Below, in pieces: positions 3,321-64,000 of a stretch of DNA of 64,000 nt. A program made the translations under genes and the position numbers. Within the stretch, counting starts at the first letter, position 1, and the number at the start of each line of letters is the position of its first letter. Location: contig JAVGWX010000025.1 of the NCBI GenBank assembly GCA_036924085.1, positions 24,012,752 to 24,076,751 of the forward strand, written 5' to 3'. The notes beneath the pieces were generated by a model, which saw nothing but the letters and a program-made list of their open reading frames with translations, did not search any database and was not told where the DNA came from. Source of the stretch: Ariolimax columbianus (taxonomy: Eukaryota; Mollusca; Gastropoda; Stylommatophora; Arionidae).

Positions 3321-3369
<49 letters not shown>

Positions 3370-4536: not shown

Positions 4537-5171
4537 TCTGTCGGAGACGTACGTACTGCGCACACCGGTCGGCGGAGGAAGGGTGTGTAAAATGCCTCAC
4601 TGGGACGGCCGCAGGGACCGACTGACGGGACGGACGGACGGTTGTTCCACCCGTCCCTCACTCCGTCGACCTAGGACCGCCTGACAGGGGCCTTCTACAC
4701 GCACCAGACGACCGACCGACCGGGCTCGCTCGAGGAGGGATGGCAGCGCTCTGTGCAGAACGGATCCCAACGACCTCGGCGACGAATTTCACTGGGACTA
4801 GAGACACCATTTGGCCTGCCCTTCTCCCCTTCTCCGTAGGGAGAGAGAGAACGCAGGGCCTCGAGGCAACGATTCCTGCTTTCCATTTGCCGGTCACAAG
4901 CTCTTTGCGAGAGTCGGACCACCAGCGAGACGTACTGTCGAGCTCTGCTATAAGCCTTAGAGAAATCACCACGGACGGACCACGTTTCCTGATACGGACC
5001 AGACTAGGGCACCTCGGTGGAGGAGCCACTACCACAAACCGCACCCAATTCGCACTACGGGGAAAGGCAGGCGAGCGTTTTCCGCAAGCCCGCGCTATCG
5101 CTCCGCCTGGCGGGACTGAGATCGCTTTACCAACACTGGTTGAAATTGAGTCGCTGCGGCGAGACAACTAC
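4537..5171 (-). other. Putative 5' external transcribed spacer of the rDNA unit
   Basis: This is GC-rich unique sequence directly upstream of the 18S 5' end and ending at the satellite. It has short tetranucleotide runs typical of transcribed spacers: GACGG/ACGG repeats at about 4624-4641 and GACC repeats at about 4709-4723. Frames are open on both strands here (for example 4658-5167 minus and 4740-5201 plus), but they overlap each other, lack recognisable domains and start in spacer sequence, so they are taken as chance. No Pol I promoter can be named by eye, since these are not conserved between phyla. If transcription starts in this unit, the start is either here or within the satellite. 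Confidence 0.65.
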
Positions 5172-8160
5172 CCCAGTTTAGTTTGGTTCAAATTGGTTTA
5201 GTTTGGTTAAGATTGGTTTATTTTGGTTAAGATTGGTTCAGTTTGGTTTAAGATTGGTTTAGTTTCGATAAGATTGGTTTAGTTTTGTTAAGATTCGTTT
5301 ATTTTATTTAAGAATGGTTTAGTTTGGTTACGATTGCTTTAGTTTGGTTAAAATTGGTTTAGCTTTGTTAAAATTGCTTTAGTTTGGTTACGATTGGTTT
5401 AGTTTCGTTAAGATTGCTTTAGTTTGGTTAAGATTGGATTAGTTTTGTTAAGATTAGTTTAGTTTAGTTAAGATTGATTAAGCTTTTTTAATAATGGTCA
5501 AGTTTGGTTAAGATTGTTTTAGTTTGGTTAAGATTAGTTTATTTAGTTAAGATTGATTAAGCTTTTTTAATATTGGTCTAGTTTGGTCAAGATTGGTTAA
5601 ACTTTGTTAAGATTGGTTTAGTTTGGTTGATTGATTTAGTTTAGTTAACATTTGTTCAGTTTGGTTAAGATTGGTTTAGTTTGGTTAAGATTAGTTTAGT
5701 TTGGTTAAGATTGGTATGGCTTGGTTAAGATTGATTTAGTTTGGTTAAGATTGGTTTAGTTTGGTTAAAATTGATTTAGTTTGGTTAAGATTGCTTTAGT
5801 TTGCTTAAGATTTGTTTAGTTTGGTTTAGATTGTTTTAATTTTGTTAAGATTGGTTTAGTTTGGTTACTATTGGTTTAGTTTGGTTAAGATTGGTTTAGT
5901 TTGGTTAAGATAGATTTAGTTTGTTTAAGATTGCTTTAGTTTGGTTAAGATTGGTTTATTTGGTTAAAATTGCTTTAGTTTGCTTAAGATTTGTGTAGTT
6001 TGGTTAAGATTGGTTTAGTTTGGTTAAGATTGGTTAAGTTTGGTTAAGATTTAAGTTAGTTTGGTTGAGATTGGTTTATTTTGGTTAAGATTGGTTTAGC
6101 TTGGTTAATATTGGTGTAGTTTAGTAATAATTTTTTTTGCTTGTTCAAGATCCGTTTAATTTGGTTAAGATTGTTTTTTTTGGTTAAGATTGGTATAGTT
6201 TGGTTAAAATTGGTTTAGTTTGGTGAAGATTGGAATAGTTTCGTTAAGATTGATTTAGTTTGGTTTAGTTTGGTTAAGATTGGTTTAGTTTGGTTAAGAT
6301 TGGTTTAGTTTCTGAAAGATTGGTTTAGTTTGGTTAATATTGATTTTATTTGCTTAAGATTAGTTTAGTTTTGTTAAGATTGGTTTACTTTGGTTAAAAT
6401 TGGTTTAGTTTGGTTAAGATTGGTTTAGTTTGGTTAAGATTAGTTTATTTAGTTAAGATTGATTTAGCTTTTTTAATATTGGTCAAGTTTGGTTAAGATT
6501 TGTTTAAGTTTGTTAAGATTGGTTTAGTTTGGTTAAGATTGGTTTGGCTTGGTTAGAATAGTTTTATTTTGGTTAAGATTGATTTAGTTTGGTTAAGATT
6601 GATTTAGTTTGGTTAAGATTGGTTCGTTTGGTTAAGATTGCTTTAGTTTGCTTAAGATTTGTTTAGTTTGGTTAAGTTTGGGTTGGCTTGGTTAAGATTG
6701 GTTTATTTTGGTTAAGATTGGTTTAGTTTGGTTAAGATTGGTTTAGTTTGGTTAAGATTGGTTTAGTTTGGTTAAGATTGGTTTAGTTTGGTTAAGCTTG
6801 CTTTAGTTTGGTTAAGATTGGTTTAGTTTGGATTAAGATTCGTTTAGTTTGGTTAAGATTGGTTTAGTTTGGTTAAGATTGCTTTAGTTTGGTTAAGATT
6901 GGTTTAGTTTGGTTAAGATTGGTTTAGTTTGGTTAAGATTGCTTTAGTTTGGTTAAGATTGGTTTAGTTTGGTTAAGTTTGTTTAGTTTCGTTAAGATTG
7001 GTCTAGTTTGGTTAAGATTGGTTTAGCTTGGTTAAGAGTGGTTTAGCTTGCTTAAGATTTGTTGAGTTTGGTTAAGATTGGTTCGGCTGGGTTAAGATTG
7101 GTTTAGTTTAGTTAAGATTGATTAAGCTTTTTTAAAATTGGTCTAGTTTGGTTAAGATTGCTTTAGTTTGGTTAAGATTGTTTTAGTTTGGTTAAGATTG
7201 CTTTAGTTTGGTTAAGATTGGTTTAGTTTGGTTAAGATTGCTTCAGTTTGATTAAGTTTGGTTTAGTTTGGTTAAGATTGGTTTAGTTTGGTTAAGATTG
7301 CTTCAGTTTGGTTAAGATTGGTTTAGTTTAGTTAATATTGGTGTAGTTTGGTTAAGATTGGTTTAGTTTGGTTAAGATTGGTTAAAATTGGTTTAGTTTG
7401 GTTAAGATTAGTTTGGTTTGGTTAAGATTGGTTTGGCTTGGTTAAGATTGGTTTAGTTTTGTTAAGATTAGTTTAGTTTGGTTTAGATTGGTTTAGTTTA
7501 GTTAAGATTAGTTTAGTTTGGTTAAAAATGTTTTAGTTTTGTAAAAATTGGTTTGGTTGGGTTAAGATTGGTTTACTTTGGTTAATATTGGTTTAGTTTG
7601 GTTAAAATCTGTTTAGTTTGGTTAAAATTGGTTTAGTTTGGTTAGGATTAGTTCAGTTTGGTTAAGATTGGTTTAGTTTCGATAAGAATGGTTTTGTTTT
7701 GTTAAGATTCGTTTAGTTTATTTAAGAATGGTTTAGTTTGGTTACGATTGCTTTAGTTTGGTTAAGATTGGTTTAGCTTTGTAAAAAGTGCTTTAGTTTG
7801 GTTAAGATTGGTTTAGTTTCGTTAAGATTGCTTTAGTTTGGTTAAGATTGGTTTAGTTTGGTTAAAATTGGTTCAGTTTGGTTAAGATTTCTTCAGTTTG
7901 GTTAAGATTGGTTTAGTTTTGTTGAGATTGGTTTGTTTTGGTTAAGATTGGTTTAGTTTAGTTAATATTGGTGTAGTTTGGTTATAATTTGTAAAATCCT
8001 TGTTTAAGATCGGTTTAATTTGGTTAAGATTGGTTTAGTTTGGTTAAGATTAGTTTAGTTTGGTTAAGATTGGTTCGGCTTGGTTGAGATTGGTTTAGTT
8101 TTGTTAAGATTAGTTTAGTTTAGTTAAAATTGAATTAGCTTTTTTAATATTGGTGTAGTT
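5172..8160 (+). repeat. rDNA-proximal edge of the satellite, diverged monomers
   Basis: This is the 3 kb next to the rDNA. The 20-bp register is recognisable but substitutions are frequent, and half-unit (10-bp) insertions occur, for example near 6245-6275 and 7372-7392. I found no long higher-order repeat here by eye. Greater divergence at an array edge is expected because exchange homogenises the interior. Confidence 0.7.
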
Positions 8161-9720
8161 TTGTCAAGATTGGTTTAAATTTGTTAAGATTGGATTAGTT
8201 TGGTTTCGATTGATTTTGTTTAGTTAAGATTTGTTTAGTTCGGTTAAAATTGGTTTAGTTTTGTAAAAATTGGTTTGGTTGGGTTCAGATTGATTTACTT
8301 TGGTTAAGATTGGTTCAATTTGGTTAAGTTTGGTTTAGTTTCGATAAGATTGGTTTAGTTTTGTTAAGATTGGTTTAGTTTATTTAAGAATGGTTTAGTT
8401 TGGTTACGATTGCTTTAGTTTGGTTAAGATTGGTTTAGCTTGGTTAAAATTGCTTTAGTTTGATTAAGATTGGTTTAATTTCGTTCAGATTGCTTTAGTT
8501 TGGTTAAGATTGGATTAGTTTGGTTAAGATTAGTTTAGTTTAGTTAAGATTGATTAAGCTTTTTTAATATTGGTCTAGTTTGGTCAAGATTGGTTCAGTT
8601 TCGTTAAGATTGGTTTAGTTTGGTTAAGATTAGTTTAGTTTGGTTAAGATTGGTTTAGTTTTGTTAAGATTAGTTTAGTTTAGTTAAAATTGAATTAGCT
8701 TTTTTAATATTGGTGTAGTTTTGTCAAGATTGGTTTAAATTTGTTAAGATTGGTTTAGTTTGGTTTAGATTGGTTTTGTTTAGTTAAGATTTGTTTAGTT
8801 TGGTTAAAATTGGTTTAGTTTTGTAAAAATTGGTTTGGTTGGGTTAAGATTGGTTTAGTTTGGTTAAGATTAGGTCAGCTTGGTTAAGATTGTATTAGTT
8901 TGGTTAAGAATGATTTAGTTTGGTTAAGATTGCTTTAGTTTAGTTAAGATTGGCTTAGTTTTGTCAAGATTGGTTTAAATTTGTTAAGATTGGTTTAGTT
9001 TGGTTTAGATTGGTTTTGTTTAGTTAAGATTTGTTTAGTTTGGTTAAAATTGGTTTAGTTTTGTAAAAATTGGTTTGGTTAGGTTAAGATTGGTTTACTT
9101 TGGTTAAGATTGGTTCAATTTGGTTAAGTTTGGTTTAGTTTCGATAAGATTGGTTTAGTTTTGTTAAGATTGGTTTAGTTTATTTAAGAATGGTTTAGTT
9201 TGGTTACGATTGCTTTAGTTTGGTTAAGATTGGTTTAGCTTGGTTAAAATTGCTTTAGTTTGGTTAAGATTGGTTTAATTTCATTACGATTGCTTTAGTT
9301 TGGTTAAGATTGGATTAGTTTGGTTAAGATTAGTTTAGTCTAGTTAAGATTGATTAAGCTTTTTTAATATTGGTCTAGTTTGGTCAAGATTGGTTCAGTT
9401 TGGTTAAGATTGGTTTAGTTTGGTTAAGATTAGTTTAGTTTGGTTAAGATTGGTTCGGCTTGGTTAAGATTGGTTTAGTTTTGTTAAGATTAGTTTAGTT
9501 TAGTTAAAATTGAATTAGCTTTTTTAATATTGGTGTAGTTTTGTCAAGATTGGTTTAAATTTGTTAAGATTGGTTTAGTTTGGTTTAGATTGGTTTTGTT
9601 TAGTTAAGATTTGTTTAGTTTGGTTAAAATTGGTTTAGTTTTGTAAAAATTGGTTTGGTTGGGTTAAGATTGGTTTAGTTTGGTGAAGATTAGGTCAGCT
9701 TGGTTAAGATTGTTTTAGTT
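8161..9720 (+). repeat. Tandem duplication, unit 800-820 bp
   Basis: The marker TTGTCAAGATTGGTTTAAAT occurs at 8161 and 8961, and the TCGATAAG block at 8341 and 9141 (offset 800). The TTGAATTAGCTT block lies at about 8681 and 9501 (offset 820, one extra monomer). Both offsets are exact multiples of 20, so the monomer register is preserved. A few substitutions separate the copies. Confidence 0.8.
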
Positions 9721-9722
9721 TG

Positions 9723-12700
9723 GTTAAGATTAATTTATTTAGTTAAGATTGATTTAGCTTTTTTAATATTGGTCTAGTTTGGTCAATATTGGTTTAGTTT
9801 AGTTAAGATTTGTTTAGTTTGGTTAAGATTATTTTAAATTGGTTAAGATTGTTTAGTTTGGTTAAGATTGGTTTGGCTTGGTTAAGATTGATTTAGTTTG
9901 TTAAGATTGGTTTATTTTGGTTGAAATTGATTTAGTTTGGTTAAGATTGGTTTATTTGGTAAAGATTGCTTTAGTTTGCTTAAGATTTTTTTAGTTTGGT
10001 TTAGATTGTTTTAATTTGGTTAAGTTTGGTTACGTTTGTTTTAGCTTGGTTAATATTGGTGTAGTTTGGTTATAATTTTTTTAGCTTGTTTAAGATTGGT
10101 TTAATTTGGTTAAGATTGGATTAGTTTGGTTAAGATTAGTTTAGTTTAGTTAAGATTGATTAAGCTTTTTTAATATCGGTCTAGTTTGGTCAAGATTGGT
10201 TTAAGTTTGTTAAGATTGGTTTAGTTTGGTTAAGATTGGTTTAGTTTGGTTAAGATACGTTTAGTTTAGATAAGATTGGTTTGGCTTGGTTAGAATTGTT
10301 TTATTTTGGTTAAGATTGATTTAGTTTAGTTAAGATCTATTTAGTTTGGTTAAGATTGCTTTAGTTTGGTTAAGATTTGTTTAGTTTCGTTAAGTTTAGG
10401 TTGGCTTGGTTAAGATTGTTTTAGTTTGGTTAAGATTGGTTTAGTTTGGTTAAGAGTGGTTTGGTTTGGTTAAGATTGGTTTAGTTTGGTTAAGATTGGT
10501 TTAGTTTCGTTAAGCTTTCTTTAGTTTGGTTAAGATTGGTTTAGTTTGAATTAAGATTGGTTTAGTTTCGTTAAGATTGCTTTAATTTGGTTAAGATTAA
10601 ATTAGTTTGGTTAAGATTAGTTTAGTTTAGTTAAGATTGATTAAGCTTTTTTAAAATTATTTTAGTTTGGTCAAGATTGGCTTAAGTTTGTTAAGATTGG
10701 TTTAATTTGGTTAAGATTGGTTTAGTTTGGTTAAGATTAGTTTAGTTAAGATTGATTTAGCTTTTTTAAAATTGGTCTAGTTTGGTTAAGATTGCTTTAG
10801 TTTGGTTAAGATTGGTTTAGTTTGGTTAAGATTGGTTTAGTTTGGTTAAGAATTCTTTAGTTAGTTAAGATTGGTTTAGTTTGGATAAGATTGCTTCAGT
10901 TTGGTTAAGATTGGTTTAGTTTTGTTTAGATTAGTTTAGTTTGGTTAAGATTGGTTTACTTTGGTTAAGATTGGTTTAGTTTGGTTAAAATAGTTTAGTT
11001 TGGTTAAGATTAGTTTAGTTTAGTTAAGATTGATTAAGCTTTTTTAATATTGGTCTAGTTCTGTCAAGATTGGTTTAAGTTTGTTAAGATTGGTTTAGTT
11101 TGGTTAAGATTGGTTTAGTTTGGTTAAGATTGGTTTAGTTTGGTTAAGATTGGTTTAGTTTGGTTAAGATTAGTTTAGTTTAGTTAAGATTGATTTAGCT
11201 TTTTTAATATTGGTCTAGTTTGGTTAAGATTTTATTTAAGTTTGTTAAGATTGGTTTAGTTTGGTTAAGATTGGTTTAGTTTGGTTAAGATTGGTTTAGT
11301 TTGGTTAAGATTGGTTTGGCTTGGTTAAGATTGATTTAGTTTGTTAAGATTGGTTTAGTTTGGTTAAAATTGATTTAGTTTGGTTAAGATTGGTTTATTT
11401 GGTTAAGATTGCTTTAGTTTGCTTAAGAGTTTTTTAGTTTGGTTTAGATTGTTTTAATTTGGTTAAGTTTGGTTTAGTTTGGTTACGTTTGTTTTAGCTT
11501 GGTTAATATTGGTGTAGTTTGGTTATAATTTTTTTAACTTGTTTAAGATTGGTTTAATTTGGTTAAGATTGATTTAGTTTGGTTAAGATTGAGTCAGCTT
11601 GGTTAAGATTGTTTTAGTTTGGTTAAGACTGGTTTAGTTTGGTTACGATTGCTTTAGTTTGGTTAAGATTGGTTTAGCTTGGTTTAAATTGCTTTAGTTT
11701 GGTTAAGATTGGTTTAATTTCGTTAAGATTGCTTTAGTTTGGTTAAGATTGGATTAGTTTGGTTAAGATTAGTTTAGTTTAGTTAAGATTGATTAAGCTT
11801 TTTTAATATTGGTCTAGTTTGGTCAAGATTGGTTTAAGTTTGTTAAGATTGGTTTAGTTTGGTTAAGATTGGTTTAGTTTGGTTAAGATTAGTTTAGTTT
11901 AGTTAAGATTGATTGAGCTTTTTAAATATTGGTTTAGTTTGGTTAAGATTGGTTTTGTTTGGTTTAGATTGGTTTATTTTGGTTAAGATTGCTTCAGTTT
12001 GGTTAAGATTGGTTTAGTTTTGTTTAGATTAGTTTAGTTTGGTTAAGATTGGTTTAGTTTGGTTAAAATTGGTTTAGTTTGGTTAAGATTTCTTCAGTTT
12101 GGTTAAGATTGGTTTAGTTTTGTTGAGATTGGTTTGTTTGGGTTAATATTGGTTTAGTTTAGTTAATATTGGTGTAGTTTGGTTATAAATTTTTTACCTT
12201 GTTTAAGATCGGTTTAATTTGGTTAAGATTGGTTTAGTTTGGTTAAGATTAGTTTAGTTTGGTTAAGATTGGTTCGGCTTGGTTAAGATTGGTTTAGTTT
12301 TGTTAGGATTAGTTTAGTTTAGTTAAAATTGAATAAGCTTTTTTAATATTGGTGTAGTTTTGTCAAGATTGGTTTAAATTTGTTAAGATTGGTTTAGTTT
12401 GGTGAAGATTAGGTCAGCTTGGTTAAGATTGTTTTAGTTTGGTTAAGAATGATTTAGTTTGGTTAAGATTGCTTTAGTTTAGTAAAGATTGGCTTAGTTT
12501 TGTCAAGATTGGTTTACGTTTGTTAAGATTGGTTTAGTTTGGTTAAGATGGTTTAGTTTGGTTAAGATTAGTTTAGTTTAGTTAAGATTGATTTAGCTTT
12601 TTTAATATTGATCTATTTTGGTTAAGATTTGTTTAAGTTTGTTAAGATTGGTTTAGTTTGGTTAAGATTGGTTTAGTTTGGTTAAGATTGTTTTAGTTTG

Positions 12701-13930
12701 GTTAAGATTAATTTATTTAGTTAAGATTGATTTAGCTTTTTTAATATTGGTCTAGTTTGGTCAAGATTGGTTTAGTTTAGTTAAGATTTGTTTAGTTTGG
12801 TTAAGATTATTTTAAATTGGTTAAGATTGGTTTAGTTTGGTTAAGATTGGTTTGGCTTGGTTAAGATTGATTTAGTTTGTTAAGATTGGTTTATTTTGGT
12901 TGAAATTGATTTAGTTTGGTTAAGATTGGTTTATTTGGTAAAGATTGCTTTAGTTTGCTTAAGATTTTTTTAGTTTGGTTTAGATTGTTTTAATATGGTT
13001 AAGTTTGGTTACGTTTGTTTTAGCTTGGTTAATATTGGTGTAGTTTGGTTATAATTTTTTTAGCTTGTTTAAGATTGGTTTAATTTGGTTAAGATTGGAT
13101 TAGTTTGGTTAAGATTAGTTTAGTTTAGTTAAGATTGATTAAGCTTTTTTAATATCGGTCTAGTTTGGTCAAGATTGGTTTAAGTTTGTTAAGATTGGTT
13201 TAGTTTGGTTAAGATTGGTTTAGTTTGGTTAAGATTGGTTTAGTTTAGATAAGATTGGTTTGGCTTGGTTAGAATTGTTTTATTTTGGTTAAGATTGATT
13301 TAGTTTGGTTAAGATCTATTTAGTTTGGTTAAGATTGCTTTAGTTTGGTTAAGATTTGTTTAGTTTGGTTAAGTTTGGGTTGGCTTGGTTAAGATTGTTT
13401 TAGTTTGGTTAAGATTGGTTTAGTTTGGTTAAGAGTGGTTTGGTTTGGTTAAGATTGGTTTAGTTTGGTTAAGATTGGTTTAGTTTCGTTAAGCTTGCTT
13501 TAGTTTGGTTAAGATTGGTTTAGTTTGAATTAAGATTGGTTTAGTTTCGTTAAGATTGCTTTAATTTGGTTAAGATTAAATTAGTTTGGTTAAGATTAGT
13601 TTAGTTTAGTTAAGATTGATTAAGCTTTTTTAAAATTATTTTAGTTTGGTCAAGATTGGCTTAAGTTTGTTAAGATTGGTTTAATTTGTTTAAGATTGGT
13701 TTAGTTTGGTTAAGATTAGTTTAGTTAAGATTGATTTAGCTTTTTTAAAATTGGTCTAGTTTGGTTAAGATTGCTTTAGTTTGGTTAAGATTGGTTTAGT
13801 TTGGTTAAGATTGGTTTAGTTTGGTTAAGAATTCTTTAGTTAGTTAAGATTGGTTTAGTTTGGATAAGATTGCTTCAGTTTGGTTAAGATTGGTTTAGTT
13901 TTGTTTAGATTAGTTTAGTTTGGTTAAAAT
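9723..13930 (+). repeat. About 1.2-kb segment repeated at 2979-bp offset
   Basis: A segment at about 9723-10950 recurs at about 12701-13930. Markers: TAATATCGGTCTAG at 10171 and 13150, and TTTGAATTAAG at about 10545 and 13524, both offset 2979; the offset at the left end is 2978 because of a one-base indel. A partial third copy with the same TTTGAATTAAG marker lies near 17257 (offset 3730) and again near 19624, with internal deletions. The following segment, with GATTTTATTTAAG at 11228, recurs at 14127 and 17758. Confidence 0.75.
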
Positions 13931-16900
13931 AGTTCAGTTTGGTTAAGATTAGTTTAGTTTAGTTAAGATTGATTAAGCTTTTTTAATATTGGTCTAGTTT
14001 GGTCAAGATTGGTTTAAGTTTGTTAAGATTGGTTTAGTTTGGTTAAGATTGGTTTAGTTTGGTTAAGATTAGTTTAGTTTAGTTAAGATTGATTTAGCTT
14101 TTTTAATATTGGTCTAGTTTGGTTAAGATTTTATTTAAGTTTGTTAAGATTGGTTTAGTTTGGTTAAGATTGGTTTAGTTTAGTTAAGATTGTTTTAGTT
14201 TGGTTAAGATTAGTTTGTTTAGTTAAGATTGATTTAGCTTTTTTAATATTGGTCTAGTTTGGTCAAGTCTGGTTTAGTTTAGTTAAGATTTGTTTAGTTT
14301 GGTTAAGATTGTTTTAGTTTGGTTAAGATTAGTTTAGTTTGGTTAAGATTGGTTTGGCTTGGTTAAGATTGATTTAGTTTGTTAAGATTGGTTTAGTTTG
14401 GTTAAAATTGATTTAGTTTGGTTAAGATTGGTTTATTTGGTTAAGATTGCTTTAGTTTGCTTAAGAGTCTTTTAGTTTGGTTTAGATTGTTTTAATTTGG
14501 TTAAGTTTGGTTTAGTTTGGTTACGTTTGTTTTAGCTTGGTTAATATTGGTGTAGTTTGGTTATAATTTTTTTAACTTGTTTAAGATTGGTTTAATTTGG
14601 TTAAGATTGATTTAGTTTGGTTAAGATTGAGTCAGCTTGGTTAAGATTGTTTTAGTTTGGTTAAGACTGGTTTAGTTTGGTTAAGATTGCTTTAGTTTGG
14701 TTAAGATTGGCTTAGTTTGGTTAAGATTAGTTTAGTTTAGTTAAGATTGATTTAGCTTTTTTAATATTGGTCTAATTTGGTTAAGACTGGTTTAGTTTGG
14801 TTAAGATTGCTTTAGTTTGGTTAAGATCTATTTAGTTTGGTTAAGATTGCTTTAGTTTGGTTAAGATTTGTTTAGTTTGGTTAAGTTTGGGTTGGCTTGG
14901 TTAAGATTGGTTTAGTTTGGTTAAGATTGGTTTAGTTTGGTTAAGATTAGTTTAGTTTAGTTAAGATTGATTTAGCTTTTCAAATATTGGTTTAGTTTGG
15001 TTAAGATTGGTTTTGTTTGGTTAAGATTTCTTCAGTTTGGTTAAGATTGGTTTAGTTTTGTTGAGATTGGTTTGTTTTGGTTAAGATTGGTTTAGTTTAG
15101 TTAATATTGGTGTAGTTTGGTTATACATTTTTTACCTTGTTTAAGATCGGTTTAATTTGGTTAAGATTGGATTAGTTTGGTTAAGATTAGTTTAGTTTAG
15201 TTAAGATTGATTAAGCTTTTTTAATATCGGTCTAGTTTGGTCAAGATTGGTTTAAGTTTGTTAAGATTGGTTTAGTTTGGTTAAGATTGGTTTAGTTTGG
15301 TTAAGATTAGTTTAGTTTAGTTAAGATTGATTGAGCTTTTTTAATATTGGTCTAGTTTGGTTAAGATTTGTTTAAGTTTGTTAAGATTTGTTTAGTTTTG
15401 TTAAGATTTGTTTAGTTTGGTTAAAATTGGTTTAGTTTTGTAAAAATTGGTTTGATTGGGTTAATATTGGTTCAGTTTGGTTAAGATATGTTTAGTTTCG
15501 ATAAGATTCGTTTTGTTTTGTTAAGATTCGTTTAGTTTATTTAAGATTGCTTTAGTTTGGTTAAGATTGGATTAGTTTGGTTAAGATTAGTTTAGTTTAG
15601 TTAACATTGAGTAAGCTTTTTTAATATTGGTCTAGTTTGGTCAAGATTGGTTTAAGTTTGTTAAGATTGGTTTAGTTTGATTAAGATTGGTTTAGTTTGG
15701 TTAAGATTAGTTTAGTTTAGTTAAGATTGATTTAGCTTTTTAAATATTGGTTTAGTTTGGTTAAGATTGGTTTTGTTTGGTTTAGATTGGTTTAGTTTGG
15801 TTAAGATTGCTTCAGTTTGGTTAAGATTGGTTTAGTTTTGTTTAGATTAGTTTAGTTTGGTTAAGATTGGTTTAGTTTGGTTAAAATTGGTTTAGTTTGG
15901 TTAAGATTTCTTCAGTTTGGTTAAGATTGGTTTAGTTTTGTTGAGATTGGTTTGTTTTGGTTAAGATTGGTTTAGTTTGGTTAAGATTAGTTTAGTTTGG
16001 TTAAGATTGGTTCGGCTTGGTTAAGATACGTTAAGTTTTGTTAAGAATAGTTTAGTTTAGTTAAGAGTGAATTAGCTTTTATAATATAGGTGTAGTTTTG
16101 TCAAGATTGGTTTAAATTTGTTAAGAATGGTTTAAATTGGTTTAGATTGTTTTAATTAGGTTAAGTTTGGTTACGTTTGTTTTAGCTTGGTTAATATTGG
16201 TGTAGTTTGGTTATAATTTTTTTAGCTTGTTTAAGATTAAATTAGCTTTTTTAATATTGGTGTAGTTTTGTCAAGATTGGTTTAAATTTGTTAAGATTGG
16301 TTTAGTTTGGTTTTGTTTAGTTAAGATTTGTTTAGTTTGGTTAAAATTGGTTTAGTTTTGTAAAAATTAGTTTGGTTGGGTTAAGATTGGTTTAGTTTGG
16401 TTAAAATCTGTTTAGTTTGGTTAAGATTGGTTTAGTTTGGTTAAGATTGGTTCAGTTTGGTTAAGATTGGTTTAGTTTCGATAAGATTGGTTTAGTTTAA
16501 TTAAGATTAGTTTAGTTTATTTAAGAATGGTTTAGTTTGGTTACGATTGCTTTAGTTTGGTTAAGATTGGTTTAGCTTGGTTAAAATTGCTTTAGTTTGG
16601 TTAAGATTGGTTTAATTTCATTAAGATTGCTTTAGTTTGTTAAGATTGGTTTAGTTTGGTTGAAATTGATTTAGTTTGGTTAAGATTGGTTTATTTGGTT
16701 AAGATTGCTTTAGTTTGCTTAAGATTTGTTTAGTTTGGTTTAGATTGTTTTAATTTGGTTAAGTTTGGTTTAGTTTGGTTAAGATTGATTTAGTTTGGTT
16801 AAGATTGGGTCAGCTTGGTTAAGATTGTTTTAGTTTGGTTAAGACTGGTTTAGTTTGGTTAAGATTGCTTTAGTTTGGTTAAGATTGGCTTAGTTTGGTT

Positions 16901-34800: not shown

Positions 34801-35736
34801 TTGGTTAAGATTGCTTTAGTTTTGTTAAAATTAGTTTAGTTTGGTTAATATTGGTTTAGCTTGGTTAAGATTGGTTTAGTTTGGTTTAGTTTGGTTAAGT
34901 TATGTTAAGCTTGGTTAATTTAGTTAAGATTGGTTTACTTTGGTTAAGATTGGTTTAATTTGGTTAAGATTGGTTTAGTTTGGTTGAGATTGGTTCAGTT
35001 TGGTTAAGATTGGTTTGACTTGGTTAAGATTGGTTTAGTTTGGTTAAGATTGGTTAAGTTTGGTTAAGATAGATTTAGTTTGTTTAAGATTGCTTTAGTT
35101 TGGTTAAGATTGGTTTATTTGGTGAAAATTGCTTTAGTTTGCTGAAGATTTTTTTAGTTTGGTTAAGATTGGTTTAGTTTGGTTAAGATTGGTTTAATTT
35201 GGTTAAAATTGTTTTAGTTTGGTTAAGATTGGTTTAGTTTGGTTAAGATTGGTTTGGCTTGGTTAAGATTGATTTAGTTTGGTTAAGATTGGTTTAATTT
35301 GGTTAAAATTGTTTTAGTTTGGTTAAGATTGCCTTAGTTTGCTTAAGATTTGTTTAGTTTGGTTTAGATTGTTTTAATTTAGTTAAGATTGGTTTATTTT
35401 GGTTAAGATTGGTTCAGTTTAGTTAATATTGGTTGAGTTTGGTTATACATTTTTTAGATTGTTTAAGATCAGTTTAATTTGGTTAAGATTGGTTTAGTTT
35501 GGTTAAGATTAGTTTAGTTTGGTTAAGATTGGTTTGGCTTGGTTAAGTTTGGTTTATTTTTGTCAAGATTAGTTTACTTTAGTTAAGATTGAATTACCTT
35601 TTTTAATATTGGTGTAGTTTTGTCAAGATTGGTTAAAATTTGTTAAGATTTGTTTAGTTTGGTTTAGATTGGTTTAGTTTAGTTAAGATTTGTTTAGTTT
35701 GGTTAAAATTGGTTGAGTTTTGTAAAAATTGGTTTG
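30245..35736 (+). repeat. Two tandem copies of a 2746-bp higher-order repeat
   Basis: Copies at about 30245-32990 and 32991-35736. Markers at exact 2746-bp spacing: ATAATTTTTTTAGCTTG at 30721 and 33467, AGTTATGTTAAGCTTGG at 32152 and 34898, TACATTTTTTAGATTG at 32700 and 35446. The AGTTATGTTAAGC marker also appears at 23291, so an older copy of this material lies at about 21.2-23.9 kb. The unit overlaps in content with the 2633-bp repeat, so the two are alternative amplifications of related sequence. Confidence 0.85.
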
Positions 35737-53900: not shown

Positions 53901-56900
53901 AGTTTGGTTAAGATCTGTTTAGTTTGGTTAAGATTGCTTCAGTTTGGTTAAGATTGGTTTAGTTTAGTTAATATTTGTGTAGTTTGGTTAAGATTGGTTT
54001 AGTTTGGTTAAGATTGGTTTAGTTTGGTTAAAATTGGTTTAGTTTGGTTAAGATTAGTTTAGTTTGGTTAAGATTGGTTCGGCTTGGTTAAGATTGGTTT
54101 AGTTTTGTTAAGATTAGTTTAGTTTAGTTAAGATTGGATTAGTTTGGTTAAAATTAGTTTAGTTTAGTTAACATTGATTAAGCTTTTTTAATATTGGTCT
54201 AGTTTGGTCAAGATTGGTTCAAATTTGTTAAGATTGGTTTAGTTTGGTTTATATTGGTTTAGTTTAGTTAAGATTTGTTCAGTTTGGTTAAAATTGGTTT
54301 AGTTTTGTAAAAATTGGTTTGGTTGGGTTAAGATTGGTTTACTTTGGTTAAGTTTGGTTTAGTTTGGTTAAAATCTGTTTAGTTTGGTTAAGATTGGTTT
54401 AGTTTGGTTAAGATTGTTTTAGTTTGGTTAAGAATGGTTTAGTTTCGATAAGATTGGTTTAGTTTAGTTAACATTGAGTAAGCTTTTTTAATATTGGTCT
54501 AGTTCTGTCAAGATTGGTTTAAGTTTGTTAAGATTGGTTTAGTTTGGTTAAGTTTGGTTTAGTTTGGTTAAGATTAGTTTAGTTTAGTTAAGATTGATTT
54601 AGCTTTTTAAATATTGGTTTAGTTTGGTTAAGATTGGTTTTGTTTGGTTTAGATTGGTTTAGTTTGGTTAAGATTGCTTCAGTTTGGTTAAGATTGCTTT
54701 AGTTTTGTTCAGATTAGTTTAGTTTGGTTAAGATTGGTTTAGTTTGGTTAAAATTGGTTTAGTTTGGTTAAGATTTCTTCAGTTGTGTTAAGATTGGTTT
54801 AGTTTTGTTGAGATTGGTTTGTTTTGGTTAAGATTGGTTTAGTTTAGTTAATATTGGTGTAGTTTGGTTATAAATTTTTTACCTTGTTTAAGATCGGTTT
54901 TATTTGGTTAAGATTGGTTTAGTTTGGTTAAGATTAGTTTAGTTTAGTTAAGATTGATTTAGCTTTTTTAATATTGGTCTAGTTTGGTTAAGATTGGTTT
55001 AGTTTTGTTAAGATTGTTTTAGTTTGGTTAAGATTAGTTTATTTAGTTAAGATTGATTTAGCTTTTTTAATATTGGTCTAGTTTGGTCAAGATTGGTTTA
55101 GTTTAGTTAAGATTTGTTTAGTTTGGTTAAGATTGTTTTAGTTTGGTTAAGATTGGTTCAGTTTGGTTAAGATTGGTTTAGTTTCGATAAGATTGGTTTA
55201 GCTTTGTTAAGATTCGTTTAGTTTATTTAAGAATGGTTTAGTTTGGTTACGATTGCTTTAGTTTGGTTAAGATTGGTTTAGCTTGGTTAAAATTGCTTTA
55301 GTTTGGTTAAGATTGGTTTAATTTCGTTAAGATTAGTTTAGTTTAGTTAAGATTGATTAAGCTTTGTAATATTGGTCTAGTTTGGTCAAGATTGGTTTAA
55401 GTTTGGTTAAGATAGATTTAGTTTGTTTAAGATTGCTTTAGTTTTGTTAAGATTTGTTTATTTGGTTAAAATTGCTTTAGTTTGCTTAAGATTTTTGTAG
55501 TTTGGTTAAGATTGGTTTAGTTTGGTTAAGATTGGTTCAGTTTGGTTAAGATTGGTTTAGTTTCGATAAGATTGGTTTAGTTTTGTTAAGATTCGTTTAG
55601 TTTATTAAAGAATGGTTTAGTTTGGTTACGATTGCTTTAGTTTGGTTAAGATTTGTTTAGCTTTGTTAAAATTGCTTTAGTTTGGTTAAGATTGGATTAG
55701 TTTGGTTAAGATTAGTTTAGTTTAGTTAACATTGAGTAAGCTTTTTTAATATTGGTCTAGTTATGTCAAGATTCGTTTAAGTTTGTTAAGATTGGTTTAG
55801 TTTGGTTAAGATTGGTTTAGTTTGGTTAAGATTTGTTTAGTTTAGTTAAGATTGATTTTGCTTTTTAAATATTGGTTTAGTTTGGTTAAGATTGGTTTTG
55901 TTTGGTTTAGATTGGTTTAGTTTGGTTAAGATTGCTTCAGTTTGGTTAAGGTTGGTTTAGTTTTGTTTAGATTAGTTTAGTTTGGTTAAGATTGGTTTAG
56001 TTTGGTTGAAATTGGATTTAGTTTGGTTAAGATTTCTTCAGTTTGGTTAAGATTGGTTTAGTTTTGTTGAGATTGGTTTGTTTTGGTTAAGATTGGTTTA
56101 GCTTGGTTAATATTGGTGTAGTTTAGTTGTAATTTTTTTAGCTAGTTTAAGATCCGTTTAATTTGGTTAAGATTGTTTTTTTAGGTTAAGATTGGATTAG
56201 TTTTGTTAAGCTTAGTTTAGTTTAGTTAAGATTGATTAAGCTTTTTTAATATTGGTCTAGTTTGGTCAAGATTGGTTTAAGTTTGTTAAGATTGGTTTAG
56301 TTTGGTTAAGATTGGTTTAGTTTGGTAAAGATTAGTTTAGTTTAGTTAAGATTGATTTAGCTTTTTTAATATTGGTCTAGTTTGGTTAAGATTGCTTTAG
56401 TTTGGTTAAGATTGGTTTAGTTTGGTTAAGATTGGTTTAGTTTGGTTAAGATTGCTTCAGTTTGATTAAGATTGGTTTAGTTTGGTTAAGATCTGTTTAG
56501 TTTGGTTAAGATTGCTTCAGTTTGGTTAAGATTGGTTTAGTTTAGTTAATATTTGTGTAGTTTGGTTAAGATTGGTTTAGTTTGGTTAAGATTGGTTTAG
56601 TTTGGTTAAAATTGGTTTAGTTTGGTTAAGATTAGTTTAGTTTGGTTAAGATTGGTTCGGCTTGGTTAAGATTGGTTTAGTTTTGTTAAGATTAGTTTAG
56701 TTTAGTTAAGATTGGATTAGTTTGGTTAAAATTAGTTTAGTTTAGTTAACATTGATTAAGCTTTTTTAATATTGGTCTAGTTTGGTCAAGATTGGTTCAA
56801 ATTTGTTAAGATTGGTTTAGTTTGGTTTATATTGGTTTAGTTTAGTTAAGATTTGTTCAGTTTGGTTAAAATTGGTTTAGTTTTGTAAAAATTGGTTTGG

Positions 56901-59900
56901 TTGGGTTAAGATTGGTTTACTTTGGTTAAGTTTGGTTTAGTTTGGTTAAAATCTGTTTAGTTTGGTTAAGATTGGTTTAGTTTGGTTAAGATTGTTTTAG
57001 TTTGGTTAAGAATGGTTTAGTTTCGATAAGATTGGTTTAGTTTAGTTAACATTGAGTAAGCTTTTTTAATATTGGTCTAGTTCTGTCAAGATTGGTTTAA
57101 GTTTGTTAAGATTGGTTTAGTTTGGTTAAGTTTGGTTTAGTTTGGTTAAGATTAGTTTAGTTTAGTTAAGATTGATTTAGCTTTTTAAATATTGGTTTAG
57201 TTTGGTTAAGATTGGTTTTGTTTGGTTTAGATTGGTTTAGTTTGGTTAAGATTGCTTCAGTTTGGTTAAGATTGCTTTAGTTTTGTTCAGATTAGTTTAG
57301 TTTGGTTAAGATTGGTTTAGTTTGGTTAAAATTGGTTTAGTTTGGTTAAGATTTCTTCAGTTTGGTTAAGATTGGTTTAGTTTTGTTGAGATTGGTTTGT
57401 TTTGGTTAAGATTGGTTTAGTTTAGTTAATATTGGTGTAGTTTGGTTATAAATTTTTTACCTTGTTTAAGATCGGTTTTATTTGGTTAAGATTGGTTTAG
57501 TTTGGTTAAGATTAGTTTAGTTTAGTTAAGATTGATTTAGCTTTTTTAATATTGGTCTAGTTTGGTTAAGATTGGTTTAGTTTTGTTAAGATTGTTTTAG
57601 TTTGGTTAAGATTAGTTTATTTAGTTAAGATTGATTTAGCTTTTTTAATATTGGTCTAGTTTGGTCAAGATTGGTTTAGTTTAGTTAAGATTTGTTTAGT
57701 TTGGTTAAGATTGTTTTAGTTTGGTTAAGATTGGTTCAGTTTGGTTAAGATTGGTTTAGTTTCGATAAGATTGGTTTAGCTTTGTTAAGATTCGTTTAGT
57801 TTATTTAAGAATGGTTTAGTTTGGTTACGATTGCTTTAGTTTGGTTAAGATTGGTTTAGCTTGGTTAAAATTGCTTTAGTTTGGTTAAGATTGGTTTAAT
57901 TTCGTTAAGATTAGTTTAGTTTAGTTAAGATTGATTAAGCTTTGTAATATTGGTCTAGTTTGGTCAAGATTGGTTTAAGTTTGGTTAAGATAGATTTAGT
58001 TTGTTTAAGATTGCTTTAGTTTTGTTAAGATTTGTTTATTTGGTTAAAATTGCTTTAGTTTGCTTAAGATTTTTGTAGTTTGGTTAAGATTGGTTTAGTT
58101 TGGTTAAGATTGGTTCAGTTTGGTTAAGATTGGTTTAGTTTCGATAAGATTGGTTTAGTTTTGTTAAGATTCGTTTAGTTTATTAAAGAATGGTTTAGTT
58201 TGGTTACGATTGCTTTAGTTTGGTTAAGATTTGTTTAGCTTTGTTAAAATTGCTTTAGTTTGGTTAAGATTGGATTAGTTTGGTTAAGATTAGTTTAGTT
58301 TAGTTAACATTGAGTAAGCTTTTTTAATATTGGTCTAGTTATGTCAAGATTCGTTTAAGTTTGTTAAGATTGGTTTAGTTTGGTTAAGATTGGTTTAGTT
58401 TGGTTAAGATTTGTTTAGTTTAGTTAAGATTGATTTTGCTTTTTAAATATTGGTTTAGTTTGGTTAAGATTGGTTTTGTTTGGTTTAGATTGGTTTAGTT
58501 TGGTTAAGATTGCTTCAGTTTGGTTAAGGTTGGTTTAGTTTTGTTTAGATTAGTTTAGTTTGGTTAAGATTGGTTTAGTTTGGTTGAAATTGGATTTAGT
58601 TTGGTTAAGATTTCTTCAGTTTGGTTAAGATTGGTTTAGTTTTGTTGAGATTGGTTTGTTTTGGTTAAGATTGGTTTAGCTTGGTTAATATTGGTGTAGT
58701 TTAGTTATAATTTTTTTAGCTAGTTTAAGATCCGTTTAATTTGGTTAAGATTGTTTTTTTAGGTTAAGATTGGATTAGTTTTGTTAAGCTTAGTTTAGTT
58801 TAGTTAAGATTGATTAAGCTTTTTTAATATTGGTCTAGTTTGGTCAAGATTGGTTTAAGTTTGTTAAGATTGGTTTAGTTTGGTTAAGATTGGTTTAGTT
58901 TGGTAAAGATTAGTTTAGTTTAGTTAAGATTGATTTAGCTTTTTTAATATTGGTCTAGTTTGGTTAAGATTGCTTTAGTTTGGTTAAGATTGGTTTAGTT
59001 TGGTTAAGATTGGTTTAGTTTGGTTAAGATTGCTTCAGTTTGATTAAGATTGGTTTAGTTTGGTTAAGATCTGTTTAGTTTGGTTAAGATTGCTTCAGTT
59101 TGGTTAAGATTGGTTTAGTTTAGTTAATATTTGTGTAGTTTGGTTAAGATTGGTTTAGTTTGGTTAAGATTGGTTTAGTTTGGTTAAAATTGGTTTAGTT
59201 TGGTTAAGATTAGTTTAGTTTGGTTAAGATTGGTTCGGCTTGGTTAAGATTGGTTTAGTTTTGTTAAGATTAGTTTAGTTTAGTTAAGATTGGATTAGTT
59301 TGGTTAAAATTAGTTTAGTTTAGTTAACATTGATTAAGCTTTTTTAATATTGGTCTAGTTTGGTCAAGATTGGTTCAAATTTGTTAAGATTGGTTTAGTT
59401 TGGTTTATATTGGTTTAGTTTAGTTAAGATTTGTTCAGTTTGGTTAAAATTGGTTTAGTTTTGTAAAAATTGGTTTGGTTGGGTTAAGATTGGTTTACTT
59501 TGGTTAAGTTTGGTTTAGTTTGGTTAAAATCTGTTTAGTTTGGTTAAGATTGGTTTAGTTTGGTTAAGATTGTTTTAGTTTGGTTAAGAATGGTTTAGTT
59601 TCGATAAGATTGGTTTAGTTTAGTTAACATTGAGTAAGCTTTTTTAATATTGGTCTAGTTCTGTCAAGATTGGTTTAAGTTTGTTAAGATTGGTTTAGTT
59701 TGGTTAAGATTGGTTTAGTTTGGTTAAGATTAGTTTAGTTTAGTTAAGATTGATTTAGCTTTTTAAATATTGGTTTAGTTTGGTTAAGATTGGTTTTGTT
59801 TGGTTTAGATTGGTTTAGTTTGGTTAAGATTGCTTCAGTTTGGTTAAGATTGCTTTAGTTTTGTTCAGATTAGTTTAGTTTGGTTAAGATTGGTTTAGTT

Positions 59901-61254
59901 TGGTTAAAATTGGTTTAGTTTGGTTAAGATTTCTTCAGTTTGGTTAAGATTGGTTTAGTTTTGTTGAGATTGGTTTGTTTTGGTTAAGATTGGTTTAGTT
60001 TAGTTAATATTGGTGTAGTTTGGTTATAAATTTTTTACCTTGTTTAAGATCGGTTTAATTTGGTTAAGATTGGTTTAGTTTGGTTAAGATTAGTTTAGTT
60101 TAGTTAAGATTGATTTAGCTTTTTTAATATTGGTCTAGTTTGGTTAAGATTGGTTTAGTTTTGTTAAGATTGTTTTAGTTTGGTTAAGATTAGTTTATTT
60201 AGTTAAGATTGATTTAGCTTTTTTAATATTGGTCTAGTTTGGTCAAGATTGGTTTAGTTTAGTTAAGATTTGTTTAGTTTGGTTAAGATTGTTTTAGTTT
60301 GGTTAAGATTGGTTCAGTTTGGTTAAGATTGGTTTAGTTTCGATAAGATTGGTTTAGCTTTGTTAAGATTCGTTTAGTTTATTTAAGAATGGTTTAGTTT
60401 GGTTACGATTGCTTTAGTTTGGTTAAGATTGGTTTAGCTTGGTTAAAATTGCTTTAGTTTGGTTAAGATTGGTTTAATTTCGTTAAGATTAGTTTAGTTT
60501 AGTTAAGATTGATTAAGCTTTGTAATATTGGTCTAGTTTGGTCAAGATTGGTTTAAGTTTGGTTAAGATAGATTTAGTTTGTTTAAGATTGCTTTAGTTT
60601 TGTTAAGATTTGTTTATTTGGTTAAAATTGCTTTAGTTTGCTTAAGATTTTTGTAGTTTGGTTAAGATTGGTTTAGTTTGGTTAAGATTGGTTCAGTTTG
60701 GTTAAGATTGGTTTAGTTTCGATAAGATTGGTTTAGTTTTGTTAAGATTCGTTTAGTTTATTAAAGAATGGTTTAGTTTGGTTACGATTGCTTTAGTTTG
60801 GTTAAGATTTGTTTAGCTTTGTTAAAATTGCTTTAGTTTGGTTAAGATTGGATTAGTTTGGTTAAGATTAGTTTAGTTTAGTTAACATTGAGTAAGCTTT
60901 TTTAATATTGGTCTAGTTATGTCAAGATTCGTTTAAGTTTGTTAAGACTGGTTTAGTTTGGTTAAGATTGGTTTAGTTTGGTTAAGATTTGTTTAGTTTA
61001 GTTAAGATTGATTTTGCTTTTTAAATATTGGTTTAGTTTGGTTAAGATTGGTTTTGTTTGGTTTAGATTGGTTTAGTTTGGTTAAGATTGCTTCAGTTTG
61101 GTTAAGGTTGGTTTAGTTTTGTTTAGATTAGTTTAGTTTGGTTAAGATTGGTTTAGTTTGGTTGAAATTGGATTTAGTTTGGTTAAGATTTCTTCAGTTT
61201 GGTTAAGATTGGTTTAGTTTTGTTGAGATTGGTTTGTTTTGGTTAAGATTGGTT
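50943..61254 (+). repeat. Four tandem copies of a 2578-bp higher-order repeat (B1-B4)
   Basis: Copies start at 50943, 53521, 56099 and 58677, each about 129 monomers. Independent markers confirm the exact period: GCTTTGTAATATTGG at 52783, 55361, 57939, 60517; TTAAGGTTGG at about 53369, 55947, 58525, 61103. I saw only a handful of differences. B2 and B3 share TAGTTGTAATT where B1 and B4 have TAGTTATAATT. B4 has TCGGTTTAATTTGG where B1-B3 have TCGGTTTTATTTGG. B1 has single changes near 51320. The middle copies look most alike, as expected from unequal exchange. It is the most regular and youngest-looking part of the array. Confidence 0.93.
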
Positions 61255-63412
61255 TAGTTTAGTTAATATTGGTGTAGTTTGGTTATAAATATTTTAGCTT
61301 GTTTAAGATCGGTTTAATTTGGTTAAGATTGGTTTAGTTTGGTTAAGATTAGTTTAGTTTGGTTAAGATTGGTTCGGCTTGGTTAAGATGGGTTTAGTTT
61401 TGTTTAGATTAGTTGAGTTTAGTTAAGATTGAATTAGCTTTTTTAATATTGGTGTAGTTTTGTCAAGATTGGTTTAAATTTGTTAAGATTGGTTCAGTTT
61501 GGTTAAGATTGGTTTTGTTTAGTTAAGATTTGTTTAGCTTGGTTAAAATTGGTTTAGTTTTGTTAAAATTGGTTTGGTTGGGTTAAGATTGGTTTACTTT
61601 GGTTAAGATTGGTTTAGTTTGGTTAAAGCCTGTTTAGTTTGGTTAAGATTGGTTCAGTTTGGTTAAGATTGGTTTAGTTTCGATAAGATTGGTTTAGTTT
61701 TGTTAAGATTCGTTTAGTTTATTTAAGAATGGTTTAGTTTGGTTACGATTGCTTTAGTTTGGTTAAGATTGGTATAGCTTGGTTAAAATTGCTTTAGTTT
61801 GGTTAAGATTGGTTTAATTTCGTTAAGATTGCTTTAGTTTGGTTAAGATTTGATTAGTTTGGTTAAGATTAGTTTAGTTTAGTTAAGATTGATTTAGCTT
61901 TTTTAATATTGGTCTAGTTTGGTTAAGATTGGTTTAGTTTTGTTAAGATTGTTTTAGTTTGGTTAAGATTGGTTTAGTTTGGTTAAGATTGGTTTGGCTT
62001 GGTTAAGATTGATTTAGTTTGTTAAGATTGGTTTAGTTTGGTTGAAATTGGTTTAGTTTGGTTAAAATTTGTTTAGTTTGGTTAAGATTGGTTTAGTTTG
62101 GTTAAGATTGGTTCAGTTTGGTTAAGATTGGTTTAGTTTCGATAAGATTGGTGTAGTTTTGTTAAGATTCGTTTAGTTTACTTAAGAATAGTTTAGTGTG
62201 GTTACGATTGCTTTAGTTTGGTTAAGATTGGTTTAGCTTGGTTAAAATTGCTTTAGTTTGGTTAAGATTGGTTTAGTTTCGTTAAGATTGCTTTAGTTTG
62301 GTTAAGATTGGATTAGTTTGGTTAAGATTAGTTTAGTTTAGTTAACATTGAGTAAGCTTTTTTAATATTGGTCTAGTTTGGTCAAGATTGGTTTAAGTTT
62401 GTTAAGATTTGTTTAGTTTGGTTAAGATTGCTTCAGTTTGGTTAAGATTGGTTTAGTTTTGTTTAGATTAGTTTAGTTCGGTTAAGATTGGTTTAGTTTG
62501 GTTAAAATTGGTTTAGTTTGGTTAAGATTTCTTCAGTTTAGTTAAGATTGGTTTAGTTTTGTTGAGATTGGTTTGTTTTGGTTAAGATTGGTTTAGTTTA
62601 GTTAATATTGTGTATTTTGGTAATAAATTTTTTAGCTTGTTTAAGATCGGTTTAATTTGGTTAAGATTGGATTAGTTTGGTTAAGATTAGTTTAGTTTGG
62701 TTAAGATTGGTTTAGTTTCGATAAGATTGGTTTAGTTTTGTTAAGATTCGTTTAGTTTATTTAAGAATGGTTTAGTTTGGTTACGATTGCTTTAGTTTGG
62801 TTAAGATTGGTTTAGCTTGGTTAAAATTGCTTTAGTTTGGTTAAGATTGGTTTAATTTCGTTAAGATTGCTTTAGTTTGGTTAAGATTGGATTAGTTTGG
62901 TTAGGATTAGTTTAGTTTAGTTAAGATTGATTTAGCTTTTTTAATATTGGTCTAGTTTGGTTAAGATTTGTTTAAGTTTGTTAAGATTGGTTTAGTTTGG
63001 TTAAGATTGATTTAGTTTGGTTAAGATTGGTTTAGCTTGGTTAAGATTGATTTAGTTTGGTTAAGACTGGTTTAGTTTGGTTAAAATTGATTTAGTTTGG
63101 TTAAGATTGCTTTAGTTTGCATAAGATTTGTTTAGTTTGGTTTAGATTGTTTTAATTTGGTTAAGATTGGTTTAGTTTTGGTTACGATTGGTTTAGTTTT
63201 GTTAAGATTGGTTTAGTTTGGTTAAGATAGATTTAGTTTGTTTAAGATTGCTTTAGTTTGGTTAAGATTGGTTTATTTGGTTAAAATTGCTTTAGTTTGC
63301 TTAAGATTTTTGTAGTTTGGTTAAGATTGGTTTAGTTTGGTTAAGATTGGTTAAGTTTGGTTAAGATTAAGTTAGTTTGGATTAGATTGGTTTATTTTGG
63401 TTGAGATTGGTT
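61255..63412 (+). repeat. Segment A', right-hand copy of segment A with deletions
   Basis: This repeats 48513-50942 but is 2158 bp long. The offset to A falls from 12742 at its start to about 12628 near 62609 and 12470 near 63361, so roughly 270 bp have been lost, including one deletion near 62.0 kb. It is followed by a new copy of the 2578-bp unit. Confidence 0.8.
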
Positions 63413-64000
63413 TAGCTTGGTTAATATTGGTGTAGTTTAGTTATAATTTTTTTAGCTAGTTTAAGATCCGTTTAATTTGGTTAAGATTGTTTTTTTAGGT
63501 TAAGATTGGATTAGTTTTGTTAAGCTTAGTTTAGTTTAGTTAAGATTGATTAAGCTTTTTTAATATTGGTCTAGTTTGGTCAAGATTGGTTTAAGTTTGT
63601 TAAGATTGGTTTAGTTTGGTTAAGATTGGTTTAGTTTGGTAAAGATTAGTTTAGTTTAGTTAAGATTGATTTAGCTTTTTTAATATTGGTCTAGTTTGGT
63701 TAAGATTGCTTTAGTTTGGTTAAGATTGGTTTAGTTTGGTTAAGATTGGTTTAGTTTGGTTAAGATTGCTTCAGTTTGATTAAGATTGGTTTAGTTTGGT
63801 TAAGATCTGTTTAGTTTGGTTAGGATTGCTTCAGTTTGGTTAAGATTGGTTTAGTTTAGTTAATATTTGTGTAGTTTGGTTAAGATTGGTTTAGTTTGGT
63901 TAAGATTGGTTTAGTTTGGTTAAAATTGGTTTAGTTTGGTTAAGATTAGTTTAGTTTGGTTAAGATTGGTTCGGCTTGGTTAAGATTGGTTTAGTTTTGT
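63413..64000 (+). repeat. Start of a fifth 2578-bp unit (B5), cut by the window edge
   Basis: From 63413 the sequence again follows the B unit, including the GATTGTTTTTTTAGG marker near 63486. Only 588 bp are visible. It carries the TAGTTATAATT state of B1 and B4, so it may descend from an older B copy. The array presumably continues beyond the window. Confidence 0.85.

What the first reader, a model, noticed from the sequence alone, without database searches (positions are those of the whole stretch)
4537..64000. Giant 20-bp satellite sits exactly upstream of an rRNA gene
The array begins about 635 bp upstream of the 18S 5' end, where an rDNA intergenic spacer and Pol I promoter or enhancer repeats belong, and runs at least 58.8 kb. 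As a spacer it would be exceptionally long. Otherwise it is a satellite block bordering the edge of an rDNA cluster. Either way the link between one simple unit and the rDNA locus is unusual, and I do not recognise the 20-mer as a described satellite.
Basis: partly seen in the sequence, partly recalled or inferred. Interest (0 to 1): 0.75.

Follow-up and report, generated by a model that had tools for sequence, protein, structure and literature searches.

The report
Satellite array beside broken ribosomal gene
In the DNA of what is likely a snail or slug, at least 58.8 kb of a 20-base repeat begins about 640 bases upstream of an 18S ribosomal RNA gene whose sequence stops after about three quarters of its length, so the repeat most likely marks the outer edge of a ribosomal gene cluster, a known kind of arrangement with a repeat sequence that our searches did not find in print.

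Summary
A 20-bp tandem array (GTTTAGTTTGGTTAAGATTG) runs from 5176 to the window end, 58.8 kb without interruption, and starts 639 bp upstream of the 18S 5' end. The finding does not mention that the 18S gene is interrupted: its sequence stops at about 3140 (model position about 1365 of 1831), and within the window only a diverged copy of the 28S 3' end and a gastropod-type LINE follow. No 20-mer array lies on that side. The array is built 5>10>20 bp, with recent internal duplications of 1.7-7.7 kb (one 2578-bp unit in four copies, 99.6-99.9% identical). The kilobases next to the rDNA are the least duplicated, as at an old array edge. The leader (639 bp) is shorter than the partial 5' ETS (980 bp) assembled for another gastropod. 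I read it as a satellite block abutting the outermost, likely defective unit of an rDNA cluster, turned over by unequal exchange or amplification. A giant intergenic spacer is not excluded: the 28S 3' flank of normal units could not be seen (the genome search did not complete). Satellites inside spacers and just outside rDNA clusters are known, for example AuSat in Aglais urticae. New member of a known kind; modest interest.

The parts
5176..64000 (+). 20-bp tandem array, unit GTTTAGTTTGGTTAAGATTG, runs out of the window
   Evidence: 2946 (TRF) or 2953 (own parse) copies, mean 89.3% identity to consensus, autocorrelation 0.79 at lag 20, 0.66 at lag 10, 0.52 at lag 5
50974..61257 (+). young higher-order block: 2578-bp unit, four copies
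   Evidence: pairwise identity 0.9957-0.9988
30224..35739 (+). recent tandem duplication within the array, offset 2746
   Evidence: 2770 bp at 0.9996 identity
5176..9175 (+). array edge next to the rDNA: least duplicated part
   Evidence: 10.8% of 60-mers repeated in the first 2 kb and 38% in the next 2 kb, against 0.56-1.00 in the other 28 of 30 bins; ungapped best match elsewhere 0.900 against 0.942-1.000; gapped 0.939 against 0.957-1.000
4537..5175 (-). non-repetitive leader between 18S and array, 61% G+C, presumed 5' ETS (inferred)
   Evidence: shares with the array only two overlapping 12-mers, at 5137 and 5138
3140..4536 (-). 18S rRNA gene, 5' three quarters; sequence stops at about 3140 (uncertain by roughly ten bases)
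   Evidence: RF01960, 943 bits for 3389-4533; the second match (186 bits) is clean from 3319 to about 3138 (model 1367 of 1831)
2460..2960 (-). diverged copy of the last ~500 nt of 28S rRNA, ending at the model's 3' end
   Evidence: RF02543, 108 bits, model 2906-3401 of 3401
1..1947 (-). LINE ORF: apurinic-type endonuclease, then the start of a reverse transcriptase, cut by the window start
   Evidence: PF14529, PF03372, PF00078; 61% identity to an Arion vulgaris protein

Best explanation
The array is most likely a block of satellite DNA that abuts the 5' side of the outermost, likely defective unit of a ribosomal gene cluster, and is predicted to grow and renew itself by unequal exchange and segmental amplification rather than to act as a Pol I enhancer. 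Shown: a uniform 20-bp array of at least 58.8 kb; a hierarchy of 5, 10 and 20 bp and then kilobase-sized duplications; least duplication next to the rDNA border; an 18S gene that stops at three quarters, with LINE sequence beyond. Inferred: the host is a gastropod; the LINE is what broke the 18S gene; the unit is silent; the 639-bp leader is a 5' ETS, perhaps shortened; the array is heterochromatin at the edge of the cluster. In this model the border stays un-homogenised because one side of it has no repeat to pair with, while the interior is repeatedly duplicated.
For: The 18S sequence stops at about 3140 and no further 18S match is found in the window (2860-3140 alone gives no Rfam match at E 10 or below). 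LINE endonuclease and RT follow in the same orientation. No 20-mer array on the other side of the gene: no TRF row there and only one 13-base overlap, at 5137. Duplication gradient: repeated 60-mers 10.8% in the first 2 kb and 38% in the next, 56% or more in the other 28 of 30 bins, 90% or more in 13 of 30; best match elsewhere 0.900 at the border against 0.942-1.000 ungapped, 0.939 against 0.957-1.000 gapped. Young internal copies 1.7-7.7 kb long at 99.7-100% identity (the seven longest of 31 segments). Leader of 639 bp against at least 980 bp of partial 5' ETS in the gastropod Concholepas (passages seen, PMC10797722). Precedent for a satellite right outside rDNA clusters: AuSat, Aglais urticae (passages seen, PMC10257491).
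Against: Spacer subrepeats can also be less homogenised at their borders, so the gradient does not separate the two readings. Identity to the 20-bp consensus is flat along the array (0.883-0.901), so the border is un-amplified but not decayed. The gradient is uneven: interior bins at 37, 47 and 61 kb hold only 61-68% repeated 60-mers, and with gaps allowed several interior bins score 0.957-0.972. Partners that lie beyond the window end could not be counted. ETS length differs among species. A LINE-broken unit can lie anywhere in a cluster, and the rest of the unit could continue left of the window.
Confidence: 0.6

Rival explanations
1. The array is the intergenic spacer of the normal rDNA unit, or of a subset of units, and is exceptionally long; the sampled unit merely happens to carry a LINE.
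For: Position: the array starts 639 bp upstream of 18S, where spacer subrepeats belong. Spacer satellites of very variable length are published: over 17 kb in Inachis io assemblies; As51-like repeats in characiform spacers.
Against: At least 58.8 kb without any other spacer sequence is over three times the longest spacer satellite array that I read of (over 17 kb), and longer than the longest whole 45S unit in that fish table (33,010 bp, Pygocentrus nattereri). No 28S and no second 18S within the 58.8 kb. The sampled unit looks defective, as edge units may be (inference).
Confidence: 0.25
2. The join is an assembly artefact that links a satellite contig to an rDNA fragment.
For: Both rDNA and satellites are prone to misassembly; reads could not be checked here.
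Against: The array next to the join is its least repetitive part (89% of 60-mers unique in the first 2 kb), so overlaps there are the least ambiguous; a false join would more likely fall in the homogeneous interior (inference). A unit-like 13-mer lies 39 bp before the array start.
Confidence: 0.1
3. The array is a telomere or telomere-like repeat, G-rich on the strand that points away from the rDNA.
For: Strong strand asymmetry: GC skew 0.77-0.85 inside the array; T 50%, G 24%, A 23%, C 2.6%.
Against: Mollusc telomeres are TTAGGG (recalled); a 20-bp unit with variants at each of its 20 positions and kilobase duplications is satellite-like. Whether a chromosome end lies beyond the window is unknown.
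Confidence: 0.03

Closest known systems
AuSat / IiSat, satellites in the rDNA spacers of nymphalid butterflies (PMC10257491, passages seen)
   Same: Satellite joined to major rDNA; AuSat lies both in the spacer and right outside two rDNA clusters; array length varies; rDNA units carrying R2 insertions occur in both species.
   Different: IiSat predicted monomer 157 bp and AuSat monomers 252-408 bp instead of 20 bp; median arrays about 2 kb and over 17 kb in the longest assembly, against at least 58.8 kb here.
As51 satellite of characiform fishes (PMC13170303, abstract and first part of the results seen)
   Same: Short-unit satellite in the 28S-18S spacer and also elsewhere in the genome.
PcH-Sat of the limpet Patella caerulea (PMC11121367, abstract seen)
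   Same: AT-rich satellite of a gastropod.
   Different: 179-bp unit, mainly pericentromeric by FISH, suggested to come from a SINE; no rDNA link in the abstract.
[quoted passage not shown]
   Same: A 28S-derived fragment fused to a LINE, mostly in the same orientation in the L1 case, as beside this 18S gene.
   Different: There: mammalian L1 with fragments often starting near position 3,636 of 5,035, or the 3' UTR of R2. Here: a diverged 28S 3' end upstream of a gastropod-type LINE ORF; that it belongs to the LINE is inferred.
R8, the R2-type element that inserts in 18S genes of hydra (PMC5035012, passage seen)
   Same: Non-LTR element within an 18S gene.
   Different: R2-type elements use another (restriction-like) endonuclease (recalled); this ORF has the apurinic type; whether its site is specific is unknown.

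Membership tests
Satellite DNA | Long head-to-tail tandem array of one unit | tested here: met
Satellite DNA | Internal homogenisation and higher-order duplications | tested here: met
Satellite DNA | Abundant at one or more heterochromatic loci of the genome | not testable with these tools
   The genome search on the window's own genome gave no answer in eleven calls
rDNA intergenic spacer | Lies directly upstream of 18S with a 5' ETS between | tested here: inconclusive
   Position met; that the 639-bp leader is a 5' ETS is inferred
rDNA intergenic spacer | Same repeat follows the 28S 3' end of the neighbouring unit | not testable with these tools
   The window holds no intact 28S; the 28S 3' copy at 2460-2960 is diverged and no 20-mer array follows it
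rDNA intergenic spacer | Belongs to an intact, repeated transcription unit | tested here: not met
   in this unit the 18S sequence stops at about 3140; other units were not seen
Telomeric repeat | Canonical telomeric motif as the repeat unit | tested here: not met
   the unit is a 20-mer, not TTAGGG (mollusc motif recalled)
Telomeric repeat | Lies at a chromosome end | not testable with these tools
   the array runs out of the window
rDNA-specific non-LTR element | Same insertion site in many rDNA units | not testable with these tools
   one copy seen; no related locus found in viral contigs

The most novel reading that the evidence does not exclude
The 20-mer is the spacer of this animal's rDNA: a 45S unit spaced by 60 kb or more of pure simple satellite, over three times the longest satellite-filled spacer that I read of, so that most of the nucleolus organiser would be one 20-bp repeat whose length is set by copy-number change alone.
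Probability: 0.15. Interest if true: 0.7.

Novelty: new member of a known kind. Interest (0 to 1): 0.33.

Why it matters
The outer edges of rDNA clusters are hard to assemble and, as far as I recall, seldom described at sequence level outside primates. A view of a satellite meeting the last rDNA unit would show how a cluster ends: with a broken unit, a mobile element, and an array whose border is little changed while its interior is copied. If it proved to be the spacer instead, it would be an unusually long one and make spacer length a matter of simple-repeat copy number.

Tried and rejected
Array as coding: the longest stop-free stretch is 47 codons on the + and 52 on the - strand; rejected. 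Array as structured DNA: neither strand of a 60-base piece folds (minimum free energy 0 kcal/mol); rejected. Reversed copies inside the array: 0 of 58,812 14-mers. A bacterial-type promoter and terminator scan of 4400-5400 gave no promoter-like site and one terminator-like site (shuffles: mean 1.5); it does not apply to Pol I. Search for the repeat elsewhere, exact pieces of 40 and 31 bases: 0 matches in viral contigs and 0 in genome contigs; these are virus and prokaryote collections, so this says little. Literature: no held paper prints any of 7 exact 20-base strings of the unit, of 40 possible. A search for gastropod rDNA spacers and satellites returned one unrelated paper. A wider one matched 554 papers, of which 20 were listed and one is a gastropod satellite study (PMC11121367), seen as an abstract. 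A search on rDNA spacers and satellites with 'mollus' matched 43 papers, 20 listed. A second 28S-like stretch at 2960-3140 was suspected by eye; Rfam found none at E 10 or below for 2860-3140. An ORF1 for the LINE between 1948 and 3141 was sought: no zinc-knuckle pattern in the three minus-strand frames, and no Pfam match at E 1 or below for the 145-codon frame. A BLAST self-comparison for blocks of at least 1500 bp returned no rows and was replaced by k-mer diagonals. The shared LINE/leader motif folds no better than its shuffles (82 and 43 of 200 shuffles at least as good).

Full report
What is there. The window holds, from right to left: a 20-bp tandem array from 5176 to the window end; a 639-bp G+C-rich leader (4537-5175); an 18S rRNA gene on the minus strand starting at about 4536; and, beyond its end, LINE sequence in the same orientation down to position 1. 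TRF reports 2946 copies of GTTTAGTTTGGTTAAGATTG. My wrap-around parse of 5176-64000 gave 2953 units, 427 distinct, 2789 of exactly 20 bp, mean identity 89.3% to the consensus; the worst run of ten units is 75% identical, so no foreign insert was seen.

How the array is built. Autocorrelation is 0.52 at lag 5, 0.66 at lag 10 and 0.79 at lag 20: the unit reads as four related pentamers (GTTTA GTTTG GTTAA GATTG, sharing 2 to 4 of 5 bases), which suggests successive doublings. Above that lie kilobase duplications. Of 4852 diagonal segments, 31 are at least 600 bp. The longest is 7706 bp at offset 2578 and 99.84% identity: a 2578-bp unit in four copies (50974 on; pairwise 0.9957-0.9988). Others have offsets 2746, 1933, 2633 and 4525. 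Of the 2519 60-mers of the first 2578-bp copy, 1413 also occur elsewhere in the array. G positions are the least conserved: counting each distinct unit once, 27% of G differ from consensus against about 9% of T and 8% of A.

The border. In the first 2 kb 10.8% of 60-mers recur in the array, and 38% in the next 2 kb. The other 28 of 30 bins lie between 56% and 100%: 56-67% from 9 to 21 kb, 13 of 30 bins at 90% or more, and dips to 61-68% at 37, 47 and 61 kb. The best ungapped match elsewhere is 0.900 for the first 4 kb and 0.942-1.000 beyond. With gaps it is 0.939 against 0.957-1.000, so the gradient is present but shallow and uneven. Partners beyond the window end are not counted. Identity to the 20-bp consensus does not fall at the border (0.898). 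The border is therefore little amplified, not decayed. This fits the edge of a tandem array, and it makes a false join less likely, because the sequence at the join is nearly unique (inference).

The ribosomal side. The 18S match is strong (943 bits for 3389-4533). A second match (186 bits) is clean from 3319 to about 3138, model position 1367 of 1831. Rfam nominally carries it on to 2853 across an insertion of about 170 bases, but that last stretch lies inside the region that matches 28S (2460-2960), and 2860-3140 alone gives no match at all. I therefore place the end of the 18S sequence at about 3140. The stretch 2460-2960 is a diverged copy of the last part of 28S rRNA, ending at the model's last position (108 bits). 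From 1947 down is an ORF with an apurinic-type endonuclease and the start of a reverse transcriptase. Its best relative is an Arion vulgaris protein at 61%. Of 149 hits, 120 were listed; 20 of these carry an organism name, 18 gastropods (grouping recalled) and 2 Culex, the latter weak (only 7996 candidates were scored). So the host is likely a gastropod. The 18S part matches its model well while the 28S piece is diverged. I infer that the 28S piece came with the LINE and that the LINE broke the 18S gene; one copy cannot prove it, and the 18S gene could resume left of the window.

Spacer or edge. For the spacer: the array is where a spacer belongs. Against it: this unit is interrupted; the leader is shorter than the 980 bp of partial 5' ETS assembled in the gastropod Concholepas concholepas (PMC10797722, passages); and the array exceeds the longest spacer satellite array that I read of (over 17 kb in Inachis io; PMC10257491, passages). 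In Aglais urticae the same satellite lies in the spacer and right outside two rDNA clusters, so both could hold here as well. In characiform fishes As51-like repeats sit in the spacer and the satellite is thought to have spread from there (PMC13170303, abstract and first part of the results).

Verdict. Observation confirmed; interpretation partly supported. The best reading is an edge satellite next to a likely dead rDNA unit (0.6), then a giant spacer (0.25), then an assembly artefact (0.1). The repeat was not found in print for the 7 strings tried in the held papers, but the arrangement is of a known kind.

Noticed in passing
2460-2960, minus strand: A diverged copy of the 28S rRNA 3' end (108 bits, ends at the model's last base) lies between the broken 18S gene and a LINE ORF in the same orientation; the LINE lineage may carry a captured 28S tail upstream of its ORF.
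   Followed up: partly
1816-1844 and 5088-5117: A 29-30-base GC-rich motif is shared by the N-terminal part of the LINE ORF and the 18S leader: local score 39 against a maximum of 36 in 600 dinucleotide shuffles. Meaning unknown.
   Followed up: partly
about 1774-1860, minus strand: The LINE family shares an N-terminal stretch rich in Pro, Gly and Arg ahead of the endonuclease, seen in 10 of the 12 relatives aligned.
   Followed up: no
5176-64000: G positions of the repeat vary about three times as often as T or A positions, with G>T (11.9%) and G>A (10.9%) the commonest changes among distinct units.
   Followed up: no
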